Of a stretch of 64,000 nt of DNA, positions 32,809 through 38,718 are shown piece by piece (the first letter of the stretch is position 1; every line of letters begins with the position of its first letter). The stretch is from Shewanella metallivivens. GTDB lineage: Bacteria > Pseudomonadota > Gammaproteobacteria > Enterobacterales > Shewanellaceae. The notes under the pieces are model-generated. The model worked only from the letters and a program-made list of their open reading frames with translations, was not told where the DNA came from and made no database searches. The DNA is taken from the NCBI RefSeq assembly GCF_028750675.1, contig NZ_JAQQPZ010000002.1:187800-251799 (forward strand). The letters are read 5' to 3'. Position numbers and translations under genes: made by a program.

Positions 32809-33089
32809 GATGTTTAAGTTCCCCATTGTCTTATACCCACTCGAGCCGTTGCCTAGCGCTTTAAGACACTGCTCATCTCGCTGAAGATTGCAGTGCCTTT
32901 TTCAAACTGACGGCTTAATTAACAGCTTAATATCAACTCTAAATAAGCTTGTTTGCTAAGCGTTGAGTTATTTATACGTGGTTTATGACATGAACAAAAA
33001 CGGGTTTATTTCACCTGCTACATGAGCGTAATTCATCATCAGTAAACAGTGTGATCAGCATAGGTTGTCGCCTGACGTTAACATGGGTT

Positions 33090-33645
33090 GTTAGCGACTT
33101 TCTCGTCGTCCCGGCAATGTTTTTGAGCCGGGATCCAGGTTTTTGCATTGTACTTTTGTATTCATGGCCTGCGGCCACTAACGTCGTGGTGCTTCGCCCA
33201 CACCAGACCAAGAGGAAACCAACGGCTATTCCCTCTTTACTTTTTATAAAAGAATTGGCCCAGCCGTCACCTCAAAATTATCATTATTGACTAAAAAACA
33301 GCTGAGATAATTTCGCGACGTGGTCAGATCCAGCTTTTAACCGCATTTGAAGTCTGCTTCGGCCACCTCTTTATGGTAAAGAATGAAAATGCTAACGCTT
33401 CAGATGGGGCGTCCATTCCCTTCTAAAGCTAGCTCGCCGTCTATGGCCAGCTCACGTATTCTTTTGTAAAGAGTCTTCAACGGCCTCAAGTTCGGAGTTG
33501 AATTTGGGCACTTCAAGCTGAGACATCTAACTCATTTTTGTATAGAAGCTTGTTAGCTACTTTCTCGTCGTCCCGGCAATGGTTTTGAGCCGGGATCCAG
33601 GTGTTTTGTTCTTTATGGCCTGAGGGCACTAACGTCGTAGCGCTT
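33090..33645 (+). repeat. Left copy of a ~0.5-kb repeat family with hairpin cores
   Basis: The stretch begins TTAGCGACTTTCTCGTCGTC and carries two hairpin cores CCCGGC-N11-GCCGGG (33110-33132 and 33572-33594), each followed by GATCCAGG. In between come CATGGCCTGCGGCCACTAA and other blocks. The same blocks recur in inverted orientation at 38030-38516. Translation of it gives only spurious frames. It opens the accessory island on the mesX side. The interval 32809-33089 has no recognised feature. Confidence 0.75.
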
Positions 33646-33668: not shown

Positions 33669-34072
33669 GGTATCACAAGTTAAGGCTCTGGCGTAGTTCG
33701 ACTTTTGTTTTCAGTGATGATTAGGGACACAGAAATAATATTGAGTAATGCCAAGCTCGAATAAACAAGCTCGAATAAACAAGCTCGAATAAATAGATAA
33801 GAAAGCAGGATTATATTCACCAAGAGATGGATCGCAGTTCATTATTGTAATAAATAGCTAACCAGAAAGTGAGTTAAGTCATTTCTTTAAAGAGAGTAAA
33901 TGAACCGCGCTCGGCAACATGCTCCTGCGTTGCTCTACCTCTTGAATCTGACCGCCATGGACGGCGGGAAAGCCATATTGATGCCTGGAGCATAATTGGC
34001 CATTCAGTCGTGTGCGGAGCCGCATGCAGGGTGGTGTGGGGGCTGGAGGCTAGATACCTCCGGCTACCCGAT
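33669..34072 (+). mobile_element. Decayed 3' end of a group II intron (copy 1)
   Basis: It matches the 3' part of the intact intron: GGTATCACAAGT (compare 36459), GCAGGATTATATTCAC (compare 36538), then the domain V/VI sequence up to CTACCCGAT at 34072, which is identical to the intact copy. The upstream intron and most of the reverse transcriptase are gone, small insertions are present, and about 110 bp split domain V after GAACCGC. It cannot splice. It ends at the attC core TATGC of the next cassette gene, the same relative position as copy 2. Confidence 0.75.
33753..33794 (+). repeat. Three tandem copies of a 14-bp repeat
   Basis: CAAGCTCGAATAAA occurs three times in a row (33753-33766, 33767-33780, 33781-33794, last one identical). 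It lies inside the decayed intron copy and is not in the intact copy, so it arose during decay. Confidence 0.85.
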
Positions 34073-34611
34073 TATGCTTTTTGACTCGACTCAGAAGTCT
34101 TAGTTTCACTGTTCGGTTGCTTCATAACTTCAGCTAGAAACTCGAGCCTCATCTCAGGCTTATCTGACGCGATGTTAATTTTTCCAAAATAACTGTTTTG
34201 CCAATGCCAAAACTCAACTTCAAAGTATTTGGCTATATATTTAGAATCAGCTTCCTTTATGCTAACCATGAAATTTAACTTTTTATAGAAATGTTCAATT
34301 TTTGAAATTTTTTGCCACTCTTCTGTTGATAAATTGTGGTAAAGATTATCCCAAGAAGGACTCTCAATATCATTAAATGCTTTTCTTAACGCCAGCCCCG
34401 CATCGTTCCGAATTTGAATATAGCCTGGCGATGTATATTCTTGAATTAAATCAAGAGCCCTATTTTTCCTCTCTCGATTTGTTTCATGGAGAACAATGAG
34501 TGTTGCAGAAATTCCGGCACCTATTGCGGCACCTAATAATGCAGCACCAACACTTCCCGAAAGTGCACCGATTATTGCGCTAAAAATACTTGTAATTGTT
34601 ATTGTTTCCAT
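34072..34611 (-). CDS. Integron-cassette membrane protein of unknown function
   Basis: The 179-aa protein has one Gly/Ala-rich membrane segment near the N-terminus (about 10-42) and a charged helical C-terminal region with several Trp and Tyr residues (SWDNLYHNL, FWHWQNSYF); it may be a DUF4760-like protein, not certain. Its stop codon overlaps the last base of a decayed intron, and its reading end GCATAA is an attC core. Its 37-nt leader begins with GTTATGC, also an attC core. Therefore it reads as a gene cassette. Function unknown; a phage- or stress-related role is only a guess. Confidence 0.7.
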   Translation of the reverse strand: METITITSIFSAIIGALSGSVGAALLGAAIGAGISATLIVLHETNRERKNRALDLIQEYTSPGYIQIRNDAGLALRKAFNDIESPSWDNLYHNLSTEEWQKISKIEHFYKKLNFMVSIKEADSKYIAKYFEVEFWHWQNSYFGKINIASDKPEMRLEFLAEVMKQPNSETKTSESSQKA

Positions 34612-34648
34612 TTAATTCCCATAAATTAGTTGTAAACATTGTACTATT

Positions 34649-34734
34649 GCATAACGCTTGTATTTGGCGCATTTTTTTTTTGTGTTGCTTGGTCTTTTTC
34701 AAGCGACGCAAAAAATGTCGCTCAAGATACTTTT
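34649..34734 (-). repeat. attC site of the DUF4238 cassette, split by the intron
   Basis: On the plus strand it starts with the core GCATAAC (34649-34655) and folds back on itself: GTATTTGGCGCATTTTTT pairs with the later AAAAAATG...GATAC with a few unpaired bases, and GTTGCTTG (34684-34691) with CAAGCGAC (34700-34707) around a GTCTTTTT loop. The other core lies after the intron as TAGGC (36686-36690). Joining TTTTGT to TAGGC restores GTTAGGC. This is the extended hairpin shape of attC sites used by integron integrases. Confidence 0.7.
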
Positions 34735-35252
34735 GTGTACGCCCAGCATGGGCATGAACTAATGAGGTGAAAGTCCTCTGTAGGAAGGTCACCGTTTAAA
34801 TAACATACTGTTATTAAACGTTAACTACTAGCGAATGGCAAGGGCTTAATTGCGAGGTTTGGTCCGGAGGAAGCCGCTAGCAAATTTGTGAGCTGATGAA
34901 CAAGAACATCATATGAGGCGTAGGCTAGAGATGAGTTGGCACAAGACGACGAAATCACGTGATCTAATGGCCACCGTAAATGATGCAGCAGTGCAAAGAA
35001 AGTTCATGTTCTTATCTGGGGAGATCTGCTTAACACGCGATCGGTCATTAACCAGTAAGGCTCTGGTTTATAAGTGCCTTGGCTTTTCAATTTCATCGAC
35101 TGAAAAGAGCGAACCAGATGGAAACCGATAGCGCATGACGGGGTAACTTGGCATGTGATTAAGCAGAAGTCAGCAGACGGCATAGTAGCCCAACGCCCAT
35201 TGTAATGATTGGGACATGGTGAAGGCCTGAACATTTAGAAGAAGGAGGAGTC

Positions 35253-36599
35253 TTGTCAAACTTGTCGATACCCACTACGTCGCCAGACGATTACTATCGG
35301 CAGCGTATTGATATGCAACCGGCCTTCAACCGCGATCTATTTCAACAACTGCTCGAACCTGAAAATCTGCACCGAGCTTGGCGTCAAGTTAAAGCCAATA
35401 AAGGCGCGGCGGGCATCGATGGCATGACCATCGAAGCCTTCCCGCTCTGGATGCAACAAGGCGGCTGGCAACGGTGTAAATCTCAATTAGAGCGAGGTGA
35501 ATACCAACCCTCTGCGGTCAGGCGCGTGGAGATCGACAAACCCGATGGCGGTAAACGCAAATTGGGGATCCCTAACGTCATTGACCGTGTGATACAGCAA
35601 GCTATTGCTCAAATACTCACGCCACTGTTTGACCCATTCTTCTCAACCAACAGCTTTGGCTTTAGGCCGAATAGAAATGCCAAACAAGCGGTACTGCAAG
35701 TAAGGGATATCATCAAACAGAAACGCAAATTTGCCGTCGATGTTGATCTGTCTAAGTTCTTTGACCGAGTTAATCATGATCTCTTGATGACTCAACTTAG
35801 GAGCAAGGTGCAGGATAAGCGTCTGTTGGCGCTTATTGGTAAGTACCTTCGAGCAGGTGTGATGGTCAATGGCCAATTTGAAGCAAGCTTTGAAGGCGTA
35901 CCTCAAGGCGGCCCACTCTCGCCATTACTATCCAACACTATGTTGGATAGTCTGGATAAAGAGCTTGAAAGCCGAGGGCATAAATTCGCCCGTTACGCGG
36001 ACGACTTTATCATTTTGGTAAAGTCTATTCGAGCGGGCGATCGGGTACTCAAGAGCATTACTCAATATCTGGCCACGAAGCTAAAACTGGTTGTTAATGA
36101 ACAGAAAAGCCAAGTGGTTAAGGTAGGTCAAAGCAAGTTCCTAGGTTTTACATTTAACCGAGGAAAGATCCAGTGGCATGCTAAAACATTACACATTTTC
36201 AAACAAAAGATGAGACGACTGACGAACCGAAATTGGGGAGTTAGTATGGGATATCAATTGTTTAAAGTGCGGCAGTACATGCAAGGCTGGATCAACTACT
36301 TTGGCATAGCCAATGCTTACCAAGGATGTGTCGATTTAGACCATTGGATCCGTCGTCGCATACGTATGTGCTACTGGCGTCAGTGGCGAAAACCACGGAC
36401 TAAGGTGCAAAATTTACTTAAGCGTGGCGTCAGGATCCAAGTAGCTGTTGCTTGTGGTATCACAAGTAAAGGCCCTTGGCGTAGCTCGAAAACACCAGGA
36501 ATACAGCAAGCGCTGAGTAATGAGTATCTGAAGAAAGCAGGATTATATTCACTAAGAGATGGATGGGTCGCAGTTCATTATCCTAACCAGAAAGTTTAG
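35253..36599 (+). CDS. ltrA: Group II intron reverse transcriptase/maturase
   Basis: The 448-aa protein starts with TTG after a strong AGGAGGAG. The reverse-transcriptase domain (about 25-290) has VKANKGAAGIDGMTIE, NVIDRVIQQAI, SFGFRPNRNAKQAV, GVPQGGPLSPLLSN and the catalytic RYADDFIIL. A maturase (GIIM) domain follows (about 315-400; YMQGWINYFGIANAY, WIRRRIRM). No HNH endonuclease is present, as in class C introns. It splices and mobilises its own intron by reverse transcription at the target. All catalytic residues are present. Confidence 0.9.
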   Translation: MSNLSIPTTSPDDYYRQRIDMQPAFNRDLFQQLLEPENLHRAWRQVKANKGAAGIDGMTIEAFPLWMQQGGWQRCKSQLERGEYQPSAVRRVEIDKPDGGKRKLGIPNVIDRVIQQAIAQILTPLFDPFFSTNSFGFRPNRNAKQAVLQVRDIIKQKRKFAVDVDLSKFFDRVNHDLLMTQLRSKVQDKRLLALIGKYLRAGVMVNGQFEASFEGVPQGGPLSPLLSNTMLDSLDKELESRGHKFARYADDFIILVKSIRAGDRVLKSITQYLATKLKLVVNEQKSQVVKVGQSKFLGFTFNRGKIQWHAKTLHIFKQKMRRLTNRNWGVSMGYQLFKVRQYMQGWINYFGIANAYQGCVDLDHWIRRRIRMCYWRQWRKPRTKVQNLLKRGVRIQVAVACGITSKGPWRSSKTPGIQQALSNEYLKKAGLYSLRDGWVAVHYPNQKV

Positions 36600-36614
36600 T
36601 TAGGGGTTCTAAAT

Positions 36615-36685
36615 GAACCGCCCTGTGCGGAGCCGCATGCAGGGTGGTGTGGGGGCTGGAGGCTAGATACCTCCGGCTACCCGAT
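36615..36685 (+). ncRNA. Group II intron domains V and VI
   Basis: GAACCGCCCTGTGCGG pairs with the following GCCGCATGCAGGGTGGT to make domain V with an AGC-type catalytic triad region, and GGAGG-CTAGATA-CCTCC forms domain VI, ending CTACCCGAT. The same 3' end is found at 34040-34072 in the decayed copy. Confidence 0.75.
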
Positions 36686-37626
36686 TAGGCTCCGATTTCC
36701 CGCAGCAAGTCTTTACCACTTAAAATATCATTGTTTTTACCAAAAAATTTGAAGTCAAATTTAGGTGCATATATTTGGCAATTTAAGTTAAAAAGCATTT
36801 TACTATTGAGTACCGCTACTAGTCCCTCATTAGCTTCTATTGTTTTATCTTCTCCATCAAACTCACCAATTAATGCTAACTCTTGGGAAATAGGAAAATA
36901 AACTTCTGTACCCATTAAGCCGAAACCAGGGCTAGCTCTATAAAACGGGGGGATTTTTTCAGGCTCTTTCCAAGACAGATTCATGGGTCTATCTGTTGTA
37001 ATAAAAGGGCCTGTTTCGTCATTTGCAACTACTAGTAGCCATTTGCGATTGAACAAGCAAGGCAATATTGCATCAATTTGAATCATTTCCATTCTAATAT
37101 GATGCTCTCTTGCGACGTCGATAGTGTATTTTTTGGAATCAAAAAATTCTTTAGCGTCCTCGTAACTTACATTATTAGCTTGATTACTATCATCTTCCAA
37201 TTTACTAATTTGGCTCTCCCACCTACCTTTAGAGTCTAAAGTCATTCCCATTATTCTTTCAGCGATTTGAGCCTGAAATTTTCTCATGTGCTCTCTGCGT
37301 TCTGGGGAGCGTACAGCAATCAACGCGATTAGGTTTAACAAAATGTCTTTTGTTTCCCCCGAAAAATCTAATGTTTCTCGCAGTTTTTTAAGTGCTGTAG
37401 CGGCTTGTCCTTCAAACTTAGATAGTTCTGATTCCAAATGATTAGGATCGACCCCCTCAATTTCAACTCGATTAAAATCGCGTACACCACCAACATTACG
37501 AGGTGTTGTTTCAAAGGACTTCTTTCCTTTAGCGTCAATTACAGCAAGCTTTGATTTCTTGGATTTACCCTTAGTAAATCCTTTTAGATAACATTGCGAT
37601 AAGAAATGGTGATGTCTAGCAGTCAT
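36685..37626 (-). CDS. DUF4238 protein in an integron-like cassette
   Basis: The 313-aa protein begins MTARHHHFLSQCYLKGF and contains PFITTDRPMNLSW, both typical of DUF4238, a widespread soluble family of unknown function with conserved His residues that may bind metal. Only 4 nt separate the start codon from the attC core GTTAGGC (minus strand), with no Shine-Dalgarno, and the stop TAA lies in GCCTAA, the other core. Therefore it is a gene cassette. The intron follows immediately. A defence role is sometimes suspected for this family; not shown here. Confidence 0.75.
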   Translation of the reverse strand: MTARHHHFLSQCYLKGFTKGKSKKSKLAVIDAKGKKSFETTPRNVGGVRDFNRVEIEGVDPNHLESELSKFEGQAATALKKLRETLDFSGETKDILLNLIALIAVRSPERREHMRKFQAQIAERIMGMTLDSKGRWESQISKLEDDSNQANNVSYEDAKEFFDSKKYTIDVAREHHIRMEMIQIDAILPCLFNRKWLLVVANDETGPFITTDRPMNLSWKEPEKIPPFYRASPGFGLMGTEVYFPISQELALIGEFDGEDKTIEANEGLVAVLNSKMLFNLNCQIYAPKFDFKFFGKNNDILSGKDLLREIGA

Positions 37627-37630
37627 AGGA

Positions 37631-37686
37631 GCCTAACAGCTTATTGAATGGCAAAGTAAATTTAAAATCGGCCGTTCAAGTTATTG
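37631..37686 (-). repeat. Short attC site before the DUF4238 gene
   Basis: GCCTAAC (37631-37637) and GTTATTG (37680-37686) are the outer cores; inside, TTGAATGGC (37644-37652) and GCCGTTCAA (37671-37679) form a 9-bp stem with one G-T-type mismatch. The length of 56 bp equals the shortest known attC sites. It would belong to a cassette further right, which has been lost. Confidence 0.6.
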
Positions 37687-38029
37687 ATTAATAACATCCT
37701 ACATTTGCTAACTTATTGTTGTAAAGCAGTTTTAGTTAACTCTACTGACAAATAAAAGTGGGCTTGCGCATTAAAAGTGGACTCAAGATGCTGCAATAAA
37801 TAAAAATTCTTTTATTTCAGTGTATTACAAAATAAACAAATTATTCATCGTACTACTTTAGTTTACTTATTAGCCGATTTGCCTTAAAAACACGCCAAAA
37901 ACCATTACAACTGTTTTTGTGGCCCGAGTAGAATTCAGTTGAATAAATGGAAATCAATTAATAAACAATAGCTTATGAGCGCTTCTTGTTTTTATAAATG
38001 AATTTTCATATCTTTAAAAATTCCTAAAT
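37687..38029. other. Non-coding stretch between cassette remnant and right repeat
   Basis: No gene is supported. AT-rich with a short doubled block AAAAGTGG. It is probably the rest of a lost cassette. Confidence 0.4.
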
Positions 38030-38516
38030 TCAACTCCTAAATTGAGGCCGTTGAAGAAAATGACGTGAGCTAGCCATGGATGGCGAGCTAGCTTTAGAGG
38101 GGAAGGGACGCCCCATCTGAAGCGTTAGCATTTTCGAATAAGGCTGAAGAACACCGAAACGCGGTCAAAAGCTGGATTCAACCACGTCGCGAAATTATCG
38201 CTGCTATTGCTTAGTAAAGAATGATAATTTTGATATGTCGGCTGGGCCAATTCTTTTATCGAAAATAAAGAGGGAACAGTCGTTGGTTTCCTCTTGGTCT
38301 GGTGTGGGCGAAGCGCCACGACGTTAGTGGCCGCAGGCCATGAGTATAAAAGTACAAAGCTAACACCTGGATCCCGGCTCAAAAGCATTGCCGGGACGAC
38401 GAGAAAGTAGCTAACAAGCTTCTATCCAAAAATGAGTTAGATGCCTCAGCTTGAAATGCCTAAATTCAACTCTGAACTTGAGGTCGTTGAAGACTCTTTA
38501 CAAAAGAATACGTGAG
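38030..38516 (-). repeat. Right, inverted copy of the ~0.5-kb repeat family
   Basis: Read on the minus strand it follows the left copy at 33090-33645 block by block, with one hairpin core CCCGGC-N11-GCCGGG at 38373-38395 and CATGGCCTGCGGCCACTAA. Identity by eye is high over about 350 bp plus a further 150-bp block. Together the two copies make a large inverted repeat around the cassette and intron region. Confidence 0.75.
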
Positions 38517-38718
38517 TTGACCAACGCATGCACCTCACTAAACTACTCTTTAAAACTTGCTGATAAGACAAACATTAACAGCTTCATCATGGTGGTTTGC
38601 GAGCCGACCGTCCGACCCATGGACGGGTCGGTCGAGCTACATGGATGTACTAGCGCGTGTCGGTAAGTGAATGCCATGTTGAAGCCAAATAAAACCTTAC
38701 AGCTATATGTTTTGCAAT

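What the first reader, a model, noticed from the sequence alone, without database searches (positions are those of the whole stretch)
33669..37690. Integrase-less integron-cassette remnant with two cassette genes
The gene starts at 37626 and 34611 are each preceded by an attC core (GTTAGGC 4 nt upstream, GTTATGC 37 nt upstream on the minus strand). Both genes end in the opposite core (GCCTAA, GCATAA). Two attC hairpins can be drawn. No integrase or other integron gene is visible, so this is a cluster of attC sites lacking an integrase, cut off from its platform.
Basis: partly seen in the sequence, partly recalled or inferred. Interest (0 to 1): 0.8.

Follow-up and report, generated by a model that had tools for sequence, protein, structure and literature searches.

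The report
Scattered integrase-less integron docking site
This stretch of a Shewanella chromosome is a gene-capture site that lacks an integrase of its own but keeps the docking site; the same genome holds about a dozen such sites, and related species carry different captured genes at the same places, which suggests that one integrase stocks many sites around the chromosome.

Summary
The two cassette genes and their core sites are real. Two things were missed. (1) Between the genes lies a complete 1949-nt group IIC-attC intron (34737-36685, +) that splits the first attC; a truncated relative follows gene 2. With the intron left out, the attC bottom strand folds far better than shuffles. (2) The island is not cut off from its platform: 37638-37919 (-) is a copy of the attI/promoter half of the genome's own integron, whose intact intI lies on contig C7. 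The attI core occurs 12 times in this genome and in 28 of 129 Shewanella genomes; a scan of named genomes found it only in Shewanella. Copies at the same chromosomal place in different species (10 places, 59 pairs) are followed by different sequence in 58 of 59 pairs; at the window's place, eight species all differ. Against the closest relative, identity is 94-100% up to the G|TT crossover point and random behind it. Best reading: a distributed integron, integrase-less attI platforms stocked in trans by one IntI. Trans action is inferred. Precedent: one Shewanella prophage CALIN with its own attI (PMC9892861). Gene 1 is DUF4238, a reported single-gene anti-phage family.

The parts
37638..37919 (-). 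attI/promoter block, copy of the intI-attI intergenic region of the genome's own integron (native copy at C7:278986-279231)
   Evidence: blastn 78.5% over 247 bp to the native region; 77-89% to the other copies in this genome, 96% to the copy at the same place in G013; ends at the cassette junction
37681..37710 (-). attI core TAGCAAATGTAGGATGTTATTAATCAATAA, the stretch from which the search pattern was made
37696..37725 (-). Pc-like promoter pair inside the attI block (TTTACA, 18 nt, TAGGAT)
   Evidence: 1 found where shuffles give 1.9, so not above chance here; but TTTACA is kept at >=5 of 6 letters at the same distance in 75 of 78 copies, against 0-2 of 78 at four other distances; TAGGAT is fixed by the search pattern
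37631..37637 (-). core site GTTAGGC, G|TT crossover point between attI and cassette 1
   Evidence: identity to relatives drops to the random level here
36685..37626 (-). cassette gene 1, 313 aa, DUF4238 (candidate anti-phage protein)
   Evidence: Pfam PF14022 E 2.9e-35; PADLOC PDLC03000 DUF4238-Pers E 1e-88
36686..36690 (-). GCCTA, first part of the end core of attC1, next to the 3' end of the intron
34737..36685 (+). complete group IIC-attC intron, 1949 nt, antisense to the cassettes, 5' exon CTTTTGT| and 3' exon |TAGGC
   Evidence: Rfam RF02001, RF01998, RF00029; of 11 intron copies with both ends recognised (this one included) 10 have 5' exon TTGT| and 11 have 3' exon |TA; target TTGT/T as in PMC7923331 (passages)
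35253..36599 (+). intron-encoded reverse transcriptase/maturase, 448 aa, YADD motif
   Evidence: TIGR04416 403.6 bits against a cut-off of 300; YADD; up to 97.8% identical to plasmid-borne proteins
34649..34736 (-). remainder of attC1 ending in the core GTTATGC of cassette 2
   Evidence: fold of the rejoined site
34072..34611 (-). cassette gene 2, 179 aa, hydrophobic N-terminus, no family found
   Evidence: no match at E<=0.001 in Pfam and NCBIfam or E<=0.1 in PADLOC; relative 76% identical in G204
34011..34072 (+). 3' end of a second intron, in attC2 at the same relative position
   Evidence: 62 nt, 100% identical to the end of the complete intron (see also D1)
33754..33845 (+). further piece of the truncated second intron
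   Evidence: 78% to the complete intron
38058..38523 (-). left flanking repeat
   Evidence: inverted pairs I1-I3; further matches in the genome
33080..33639 (-). right flanking repeat, inverted relative to the left one
   Evidence: inverted pairs I1-I3

Best explanation
The island is one of eleven attI copies in this Shewanella genome that lie away from the intact intI. Such copies keep the attI site and a Pc-like promoter pair, some also a LexA-type box and the first codons of intI, but not the rest of intI. Cassettes are inserted at the G|TT point of these ectopic attI sites by the one IntI encoded on C7, acting in trans; each site then expresses its first cassette from its own promoter. In the window the first cassette is a DUF4238 gene, probably a single-gene phage defence, the second an unknown small protein. 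Both attC sites were later hit by group IIC-attC introns, which recognise the folded attC bottom strand. Shown: anatomy, copy number, distribution, the same places with different cassettes, and no intI beside the window site. Inferred: action of IntI in trans, promoter activity and the defence function.
For: Native IntI intact; the block in front of gene 1 matches the region next to intI. 12 cores in this genome; 28 of 129 Shewanella genomes; all 68 stretches of the named-genome scan are Shewanella. All 15 genomes with an IntI >=79% identical have the core, against 13 of the other 114 (Fisher 2.5e-12). Same-place copies of different species: 58 of 59 ectopic pairs (10 places) and 31 of 31 native pairs have 0.50-0.58 identity behind attI, the level of shuffled sequence (0.52). 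Window place: attI 0.77-0.96, behind it 0.47-0.57 in all 28 pairs of 8 species. G000 against G013: 0.94-1.00 before and 0.44-0.55 behind the junction at two ectopic sites and the native one. The left edge where intI is missing is 0.97 alike in the window and G013, so intI was gone there before the cassettes changed. G013 and G121 share two distal cassettes (93 and 96%) but differ next to attI. 50 of 71 copies have the reverse complement of their own core within 2.5 kb behind, 12.0 expected.
Against: No recombination was tested. Cassettes could be swapped between islands by homologous recombination: copies are more alike within genomes than between, both next to the junction (0.808 against 0.748) and upstream of the core (0.696 against 0.647), and at the window site 5 of the last 45 bp of attI differ from G013. 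One place is unchanged: L048 (S. inventionis) and L089 (S. frigidimarina) have the same sequence behind attI, and L090 (S. ulleungensis) too, dropped as a duplicate before the count; the core there, GTTGAGG, is not canonical. 13 genomes carry the core without an IntI >=79% identical, among them G079 with 11 copies. The association counts the native attI; in 2 of the 15 genomes there is only one copy. At two further G000/G013 places the attI copies differ themselves (0.58-0.87). 3 of the 11 exact copies in this genome lack a recognisable GTT junction. Only one of six base pairs of the attI stem covaries. Core conservation is fixed by the search pattern. Species pairs are not independent.
Confidence: 0.72

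Rival explanations
1. Fossil platforms: each ectopic attI once had its own intI that loaded its cassettes and was later lost; nothing acts in trans now.
For: Several ectopic copies keep the first codons of intI (MA-TGYLSDI-like) and 26 of 65 keep a CTGTN8ACAG box 170-225 bp before the core. Broken intI pieces exist in this genome (C1:33450-33799) and in G097 and G093. PMC2426708 reports pseudogene integrons arising by intragenomic duplication (passage).
Against: The window and G013 share the same intI-less left edge (0.97), as do L110/L111 (0.90) and L114/L115 (0.89), yet the cassettes differ: cassettes changed after local intI was gone.
Confidence: 0.12
2. Cassette arrays are exchanged between attI copies by homologous recombination across attI and the flanking repeats; IntI acts only at the native site.
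For: Copies more alike within genomes; differences in the last 45 bp of attI at the window site; long flanking repeats; two copies in KJ10-1 (L045, L085) share flank, attI (98%) and what follows, i.e. a duplicated segment.
Against: Identity breaks at G|TT with 95-100% in the last 100 bp before it in the three clean G000/G013 cases; among 75 copies with a junction only two pairs share the sequence behind it, so few donors are visible.
Confidence: 0.2
3. Plain CALIN made by off-target insertion of cassettes at non-classical chromosomal attG sites.
For: Scattered CALINs are reported in Shewanella (PMC9229058, passages and section 3.4) and in Xanthomonas, with attG discussed (PMC12444791, passages).
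Against: A 100-290 bp block homologous to the platform precedes the cassettes; attG sites are described as diverging from the classical att sites (PMC12901181, passage).
Confidence: 0.03

Closest known systems
CALIN / SALIN (cassette arrays without integrase), reported scattered in Shewanella (PMC9229058; passages and section 3.4 seen)
   Same: Integrase-less cassettes far from intI, in this genus
   Different: Here the arrays start at a copy of attI; what I saw of that paper does not mention distal attI sites
CALIN with its own attI in Shewanella prophage M16-3 (PMC9892861; passages seen)
   Same: Integrase-less array that begins with an attI, in a prophage that also has a complete integron
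   Different: One case in a cryptic prophage, with the S. oneidensis attI type; here another attI, up to 12 copies per genome, at shared chromosomal places with different cassettes
Sedentary chromosomal integron
   Same: intI, LexA-type box, attI and cassettes, as at C7
   Different: Besides that platform there are eleven attI copies without intI
Group IIC-attC introns in class 1 integrons
   Same: Same target TTGT/T, antisense to the cassettes; protein 97.8% identical to that in plasmid pCf52, where it lies between blaIMP-38 and qacG2
   Different: Chromosomal, in an integrase-less array; short relatives without room for the protein gene occur in other Shewanella arrays
Delta-attI cassettes of mobile integrons (PMC12901181; abstract, outline and passages seen)
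   Same: attI pieces away from intI that IntI1 can use
   Different: There attI pieces are part of gene cassettes; here attI stands at the head of arrays

Membership tests
Integron cassette array / CALIN | cassette start GTTRRRY and complementary RYYYAAC at the cassette end | tested here: met
   GTTAGGC/GCCTAA and GTTATGC/GCATAA; the last base of each end core lies beyond the intron insertion
Integron cassette array / CALIN | attC bottom strand folds into a hairpin, better than the top strand | tested here: met
   attC1 rejoined without the intron: z -4.51 against -2.27; attC2 is truncated and was not folded
Integron cassette array / CALIN | attC hits above an IntegronFinder-type threshold | not tested
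   no attC model at hand; both attC sites are interrupted in the window
Integron cassette array / CALIN | no integrase nearby | tested here: met
   no IntI-type match on contig C9
attI site | homologous to the sequence between intI and the first cassette of a full integron | tested here: met
attI site | cassette insertion point G|TT at a fixed place, with varying cassettes | tested here: met
attI site | bound and recombined by the cognate IntI | not testable with these tools
   needs a recombination assay
Full integron | intI in cis | tested here: not met
   the only IntI over the cut-off is on contig C7
Group IIC-attC intron | insertion at TTGT/T of an attC bottom strand, antisense to cassettes | tested here: met
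Group IIC-attC intron | group II RNA domains and an intact RT/maturase | tested here: met
   splicing not tested, class not tested by a tree
DUF4238 anti-phage protein | profile match | tested here: met
DUF4238 anti-phage protein | protects against phage | not testable with these tools
   reported for another member against T7 (PMC9122126, passage)

The most novel reading that the evidence does not exclude
A distributed integron: in a clade of Shewanella one IntI serves many attI-plus-promoter platforms spread over the chromosome (and, with a related attI type, phages), so that many first cassettes are expressed at once instead of only the few nearest a single promoter.
Probability: 0.6. Interest if true: 0.85.

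Novelty: new variant of a known kind. Interest (0 to 1): 0.73.

Why it matters
Why cassette arrays lie scattered far from integrases is an open question; here scattered arrays start at copies of attI, and copies at the same place with different cassettes make action in trans directly testable. A genome with a dozen docking sites would escape the limit that only cassettes near one promoter are expressed (established integron knowledge). Some first cassettes look like phage-defence genes (HamAB, OLD/GajA-like, AriA/OLD-like, DUF4238), and the copies in viral contigs suggest that phages use such docking sites too.

Tried and rejected
Rejected: a chance attC look-alike (cores match each cassette's own end; the hairpin is significant). 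An intron start at 34821 that I first assumed: a stem inside the intron looked like an attC; the homology to L021 and the shared exon boundaries moved it to 34737. An attC-like stem inside attI: one of six pairs covaries, so I claim nothing on it. Cassette sharing between the native and an ectopic site of S. ulleungensis (L065, L055, seen): both stop near contig ends, not used. G035, G105, G031, G042 and G101 have no SelO match in the stretch fetched beside MesX, so they are not clean empty sites. L122 shows only the right flank and L123 only the left flank of the C5:984 place, so no empty site there either. No match to the window attI in PLSDB plasmids.

Selections and dropped rows: the 18 genomes were picked by me, mostly because they have attI cores; the ten proteins too. 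The 79% IntI limit was set after seeing the list (next lower value for a full-length match 62%); G042 has a stop in frame and G037 is partial. One search merged 107 hits to 85 distinct copies; 75 had a recognisable junction; one search tested 71 of these (4 with under 700 bp behind); one search used 63 of the 75 (at least 1200 bp upstream). Native and ectopic are my labels, from intI beside the copy. One search used 64 copies, 56 distinct sequences. The pattern fixes 23 of 30 positions, so conservation of the core itself proves nothing.

Scripts: one search printed nothing useful (wrong paths; repeated), one search failed (wrong pattern; redone), one search stopped half way (finished); the promoter count used a wrong offset and is replaced. 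Papers on attI away from intI: searches (20 of 43 listed; 20 of 478; 25 of 338, nearly all off topic; 17 of 17; 12 of 36); in what I saw only PMC9892861 describes a CALIN with its own attI. Structure prediction was not used.
Full report
Observation. The reported cores are in the sequence at the stated distances. Gene 1 (37626-36685, -) starts behind GTTAGGC and ends GCCTAA; gene 2 (34611-34072, -) starts behind GTTATGC and ends GCATAA. The match of each gene's end to its own start is what excision and insertion of a circular cassette leaves behind (established integron knowledge). No IntI-type match lies on the window's contig.

What was missed between the genes. Rfam finds three group II intron pieces on the + strand; the ORF between them is a group II reverse transcriptase/maturase (TIGR04416, 403.6 bits; YADD). 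I place the intron at 34737-36685. Of 11 intron copies with both ends recognised in the loci fetched (the window's included), 10 have a 5' exon ending TTGT and 11 a 3' exon beginning TA, the TTGT/T target of group IIC-attC introns given in PMC7923331 (passages). With the intron left out, the attC of gene 1 reads GCCTAAC ... GTTATGC over 93 nt; its bottom strand folds at -19.5 kcal/mol (z -4.51, 0 of 200 shuffles as good), the top strand at -13.5 (z -2.27, 4 of 200). Behind gene 2 stands the 3' end of a second, truncated intron at the same relative position. The maturase is 97.8% identical to the best plasmid-borne ones; in C. freundii plasmid pCf52 the intron lies in a class 1 integron between blaIMP-38 and qacG2.

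What was missed in front of gene 1. The own genome (G000, 4.61 Mb, 16 contigs, completeness 100, contamination 4.67) has one IntI above the family cut-off, on contig C7. The 282 bp in front of gene 1 match the region beside that intI and end at the cassette junction. A 30-bp core pattern from this block occurs 12 times in the genome, 11 exact and 1 with one mismatch, against 0 for the reversed pattern. In the genus, 28 of 129 genomes have it (<=2 mismatches), up to 12 copies, reversed control 0 in each. A scan of named bacterial and archaeal genomes gives 68 stretches, all titled Shewanella (records very near the window's genome may be left out there).

Anatomy of the family. Of 85 distinct copies in the loci fetched, 75 have a recognisable junction ending in GTT, behind which the genes differ from copy to copy; in this genome 8 of the 11 exact copies have it. 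TTTACA stands 15 nt before the core, at >=5 of 6 letters, in 75 of 78 copies, against 0-2 of 78 at four other distances, and pairs with TAGGAT inside the core as a promoter-like site (where it is not above chance by itself). Ectopic copies reach different distances towards intI; several keep its first dozen codons, and 26 of 65 keep a CTGTN8ACAG box 170-225 bp before the core. The window copy shows neither. I read these as platform copies from which intI was removed. That they hold cassettes is supported by 50 of 71 copies with the reverse complement of their own core within 2.5 kb behind, 12.0 expected from permuted cores; the window copy counts as a miss there because the intron splits its attC.

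Same place, different cassettes. I compared 63 copies with enough upstream sequence. Ninety pairs from different species share at least 500 bp of upstream flank: 59 ectopic pairs at 10 places and 31 pairs of native platforms. Behind attI, 58 of the 59 and 31 of 31 have 0.50-0.58 identity, the level of shuffled sequence (0.52, sd 0.03). The exception is L048/L089 (S. inventionis, S. frigidimarina), identical behind attI; L090 (S. ulleungensis) agrees with them and had been merged as a duplicate. Pairs are not independent. At the window's place MesX was found in 12 of 18 chosen relatives; in 7 of the 12, plus the window, the MesX-SelO interval holds the attI block; in 5 SelO is not in the stretch fetched. 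Over the 28 pairs of the 8 sites the attI block is 0.77-0.96 alike, the 300 bp behind it 0.47-0.57. At two more shared places the attI copies differ themselves (0.58-0.87). The left edge, where intI is missing, is 0.97 alike in the window and G013, 0.90 in L110/L111 and 0.89 in L114/L115: local intI was gone before the cassettes changed. G013 and G121 share two distal cassettes (93 and 96% identical) but not those next to attI, as expected if new cassettes enter at attI.

Integrase and attI go together. Fifteen of 129 genomes have an IntI at least 79% identical to the native one; all 15 have the core, against 13 of the other 114 (Fisher 2.5e-12). The native attI counts as a copy; G026 and G037 have only one. 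The 13 others include G079 with 11 copies; G097 and G093 hold broken intI pieces. Loss of intI after dispersal would explain them (inference).

Cargo. Gene 1 is DUF4238; a single-gene DUF4238 system gave strong resistance to T7 in PMC9122126 (passage). Of 10 other cassette proteins that I chose from this genome, G006 and G013, 4 match PADLOC models (HamA and HamB at the native attI, an OLD/GajA-like ATPase at C11, an AriA/OLD-like ATPase in G006) and 6 match none at E<=1e-5. Gene 2 matches no family.

Phages. The core also occurs in 10 stretches of 8 IMG/VR contigs, whose best matches among my loci are those of S. frigidimarina and S. holmiensis. In L175 it is followed by two genes without known function and then endolysin, terminase, portal and head genes; L177 has a phage-type integrase and a Rha-like regulator. 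So phage-like contigs carry an attI of this family with cargo. The window attI has another upstream sequence, and I have no evidence that phages spread it.

How it most likely works. One SOS-controlled IntI (LexA-type box at the native site) acts in trans on many attI-promoter platforms; each exposes its first cassette to its own promoter. Shown: anatomy, copy number, shared places with different cassettes, no intI beside the window site. Inferred: recombination in trans, SOS control, promoter activity, defence. Homologous recombination between attI copies is the main rival: copies are more alike within genomes, next to the junction (0.808 against 0.748) and upstream (0.696 against 0.647), and 5 of the last 45 bp of the window attI differ from G013. 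How the copies spread is not settled; flanking repeats, a duplicated segment in KJ10-1 and phages are leads.

Known and new. Scattered CALINs and SALINs in Shewanella, and IIC-attC introns in its cassettes, are in PMC9229058 (passages and section 3.4). A CALIN with its own attI is described once, in prophage M16-3 (PMC9892861, passages), with another attI type. Duplicated pseudogene integrons are mentioned in PMC2426708 (passages). In the listings I saw no report of many attI copies per genome with differing cassettes; four of these listings were cut. I therefore call it a new variant of a known kind.

Noticed in passing
L175 13830 (-), L177 2331 (+), and the other stretches: Phage-like contigs carry an attI of this family followed by cargo genes, beside endolysin and terminase genes in L175.
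   Followed up: partly
L109 3433-4016 and 4627-4950; L098 2428-3039 and 3866-4550; L041, L004, L075, L081: Eight short relatives (189-685 nt) of the group IIC-attC intron with the same ends, too short for the protein gene; possibly moved by the full-length intron's protein.
   Followed up: partly
L019 7316-10455: The first cassette at the native attI beside intI holds both Hachiman genes, HamA and HamB.
   Followed up: partly
L019 10453-10648 and 12590-13043; L020 3778-4017: A repeated segment beginning ACACATATGAGCC follows the end core of cassettes on C7 and C9; the ORF after the first copy looks like an IS110-type transposase (recalled, not searched).
   Followed up: no
G000 C1:33450-33799 (L012, L018): Broken intI fragment with stops in frame, about 1.4 kb from a member of the flanking-repeat family.
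   Followed up: no
L023 3031-3060 against L121 10206-10772: The right end of the C5:984 island cuts into a gene that is longer in G006, so chromosomal DNA next to the last cassette seems to have been lost.
   Followed up: partly
L045 and L085 (KJ10-1): Two copies of one attI segment with the same flank and the same cassette in one genome, i.e. a recent duplication inside the genome.
   Followed up: partly
window 33088-33606 and 38063-38523: The large inverted repeats around the island belong to a repeat family with many matches across the genome.
   Followed up: no
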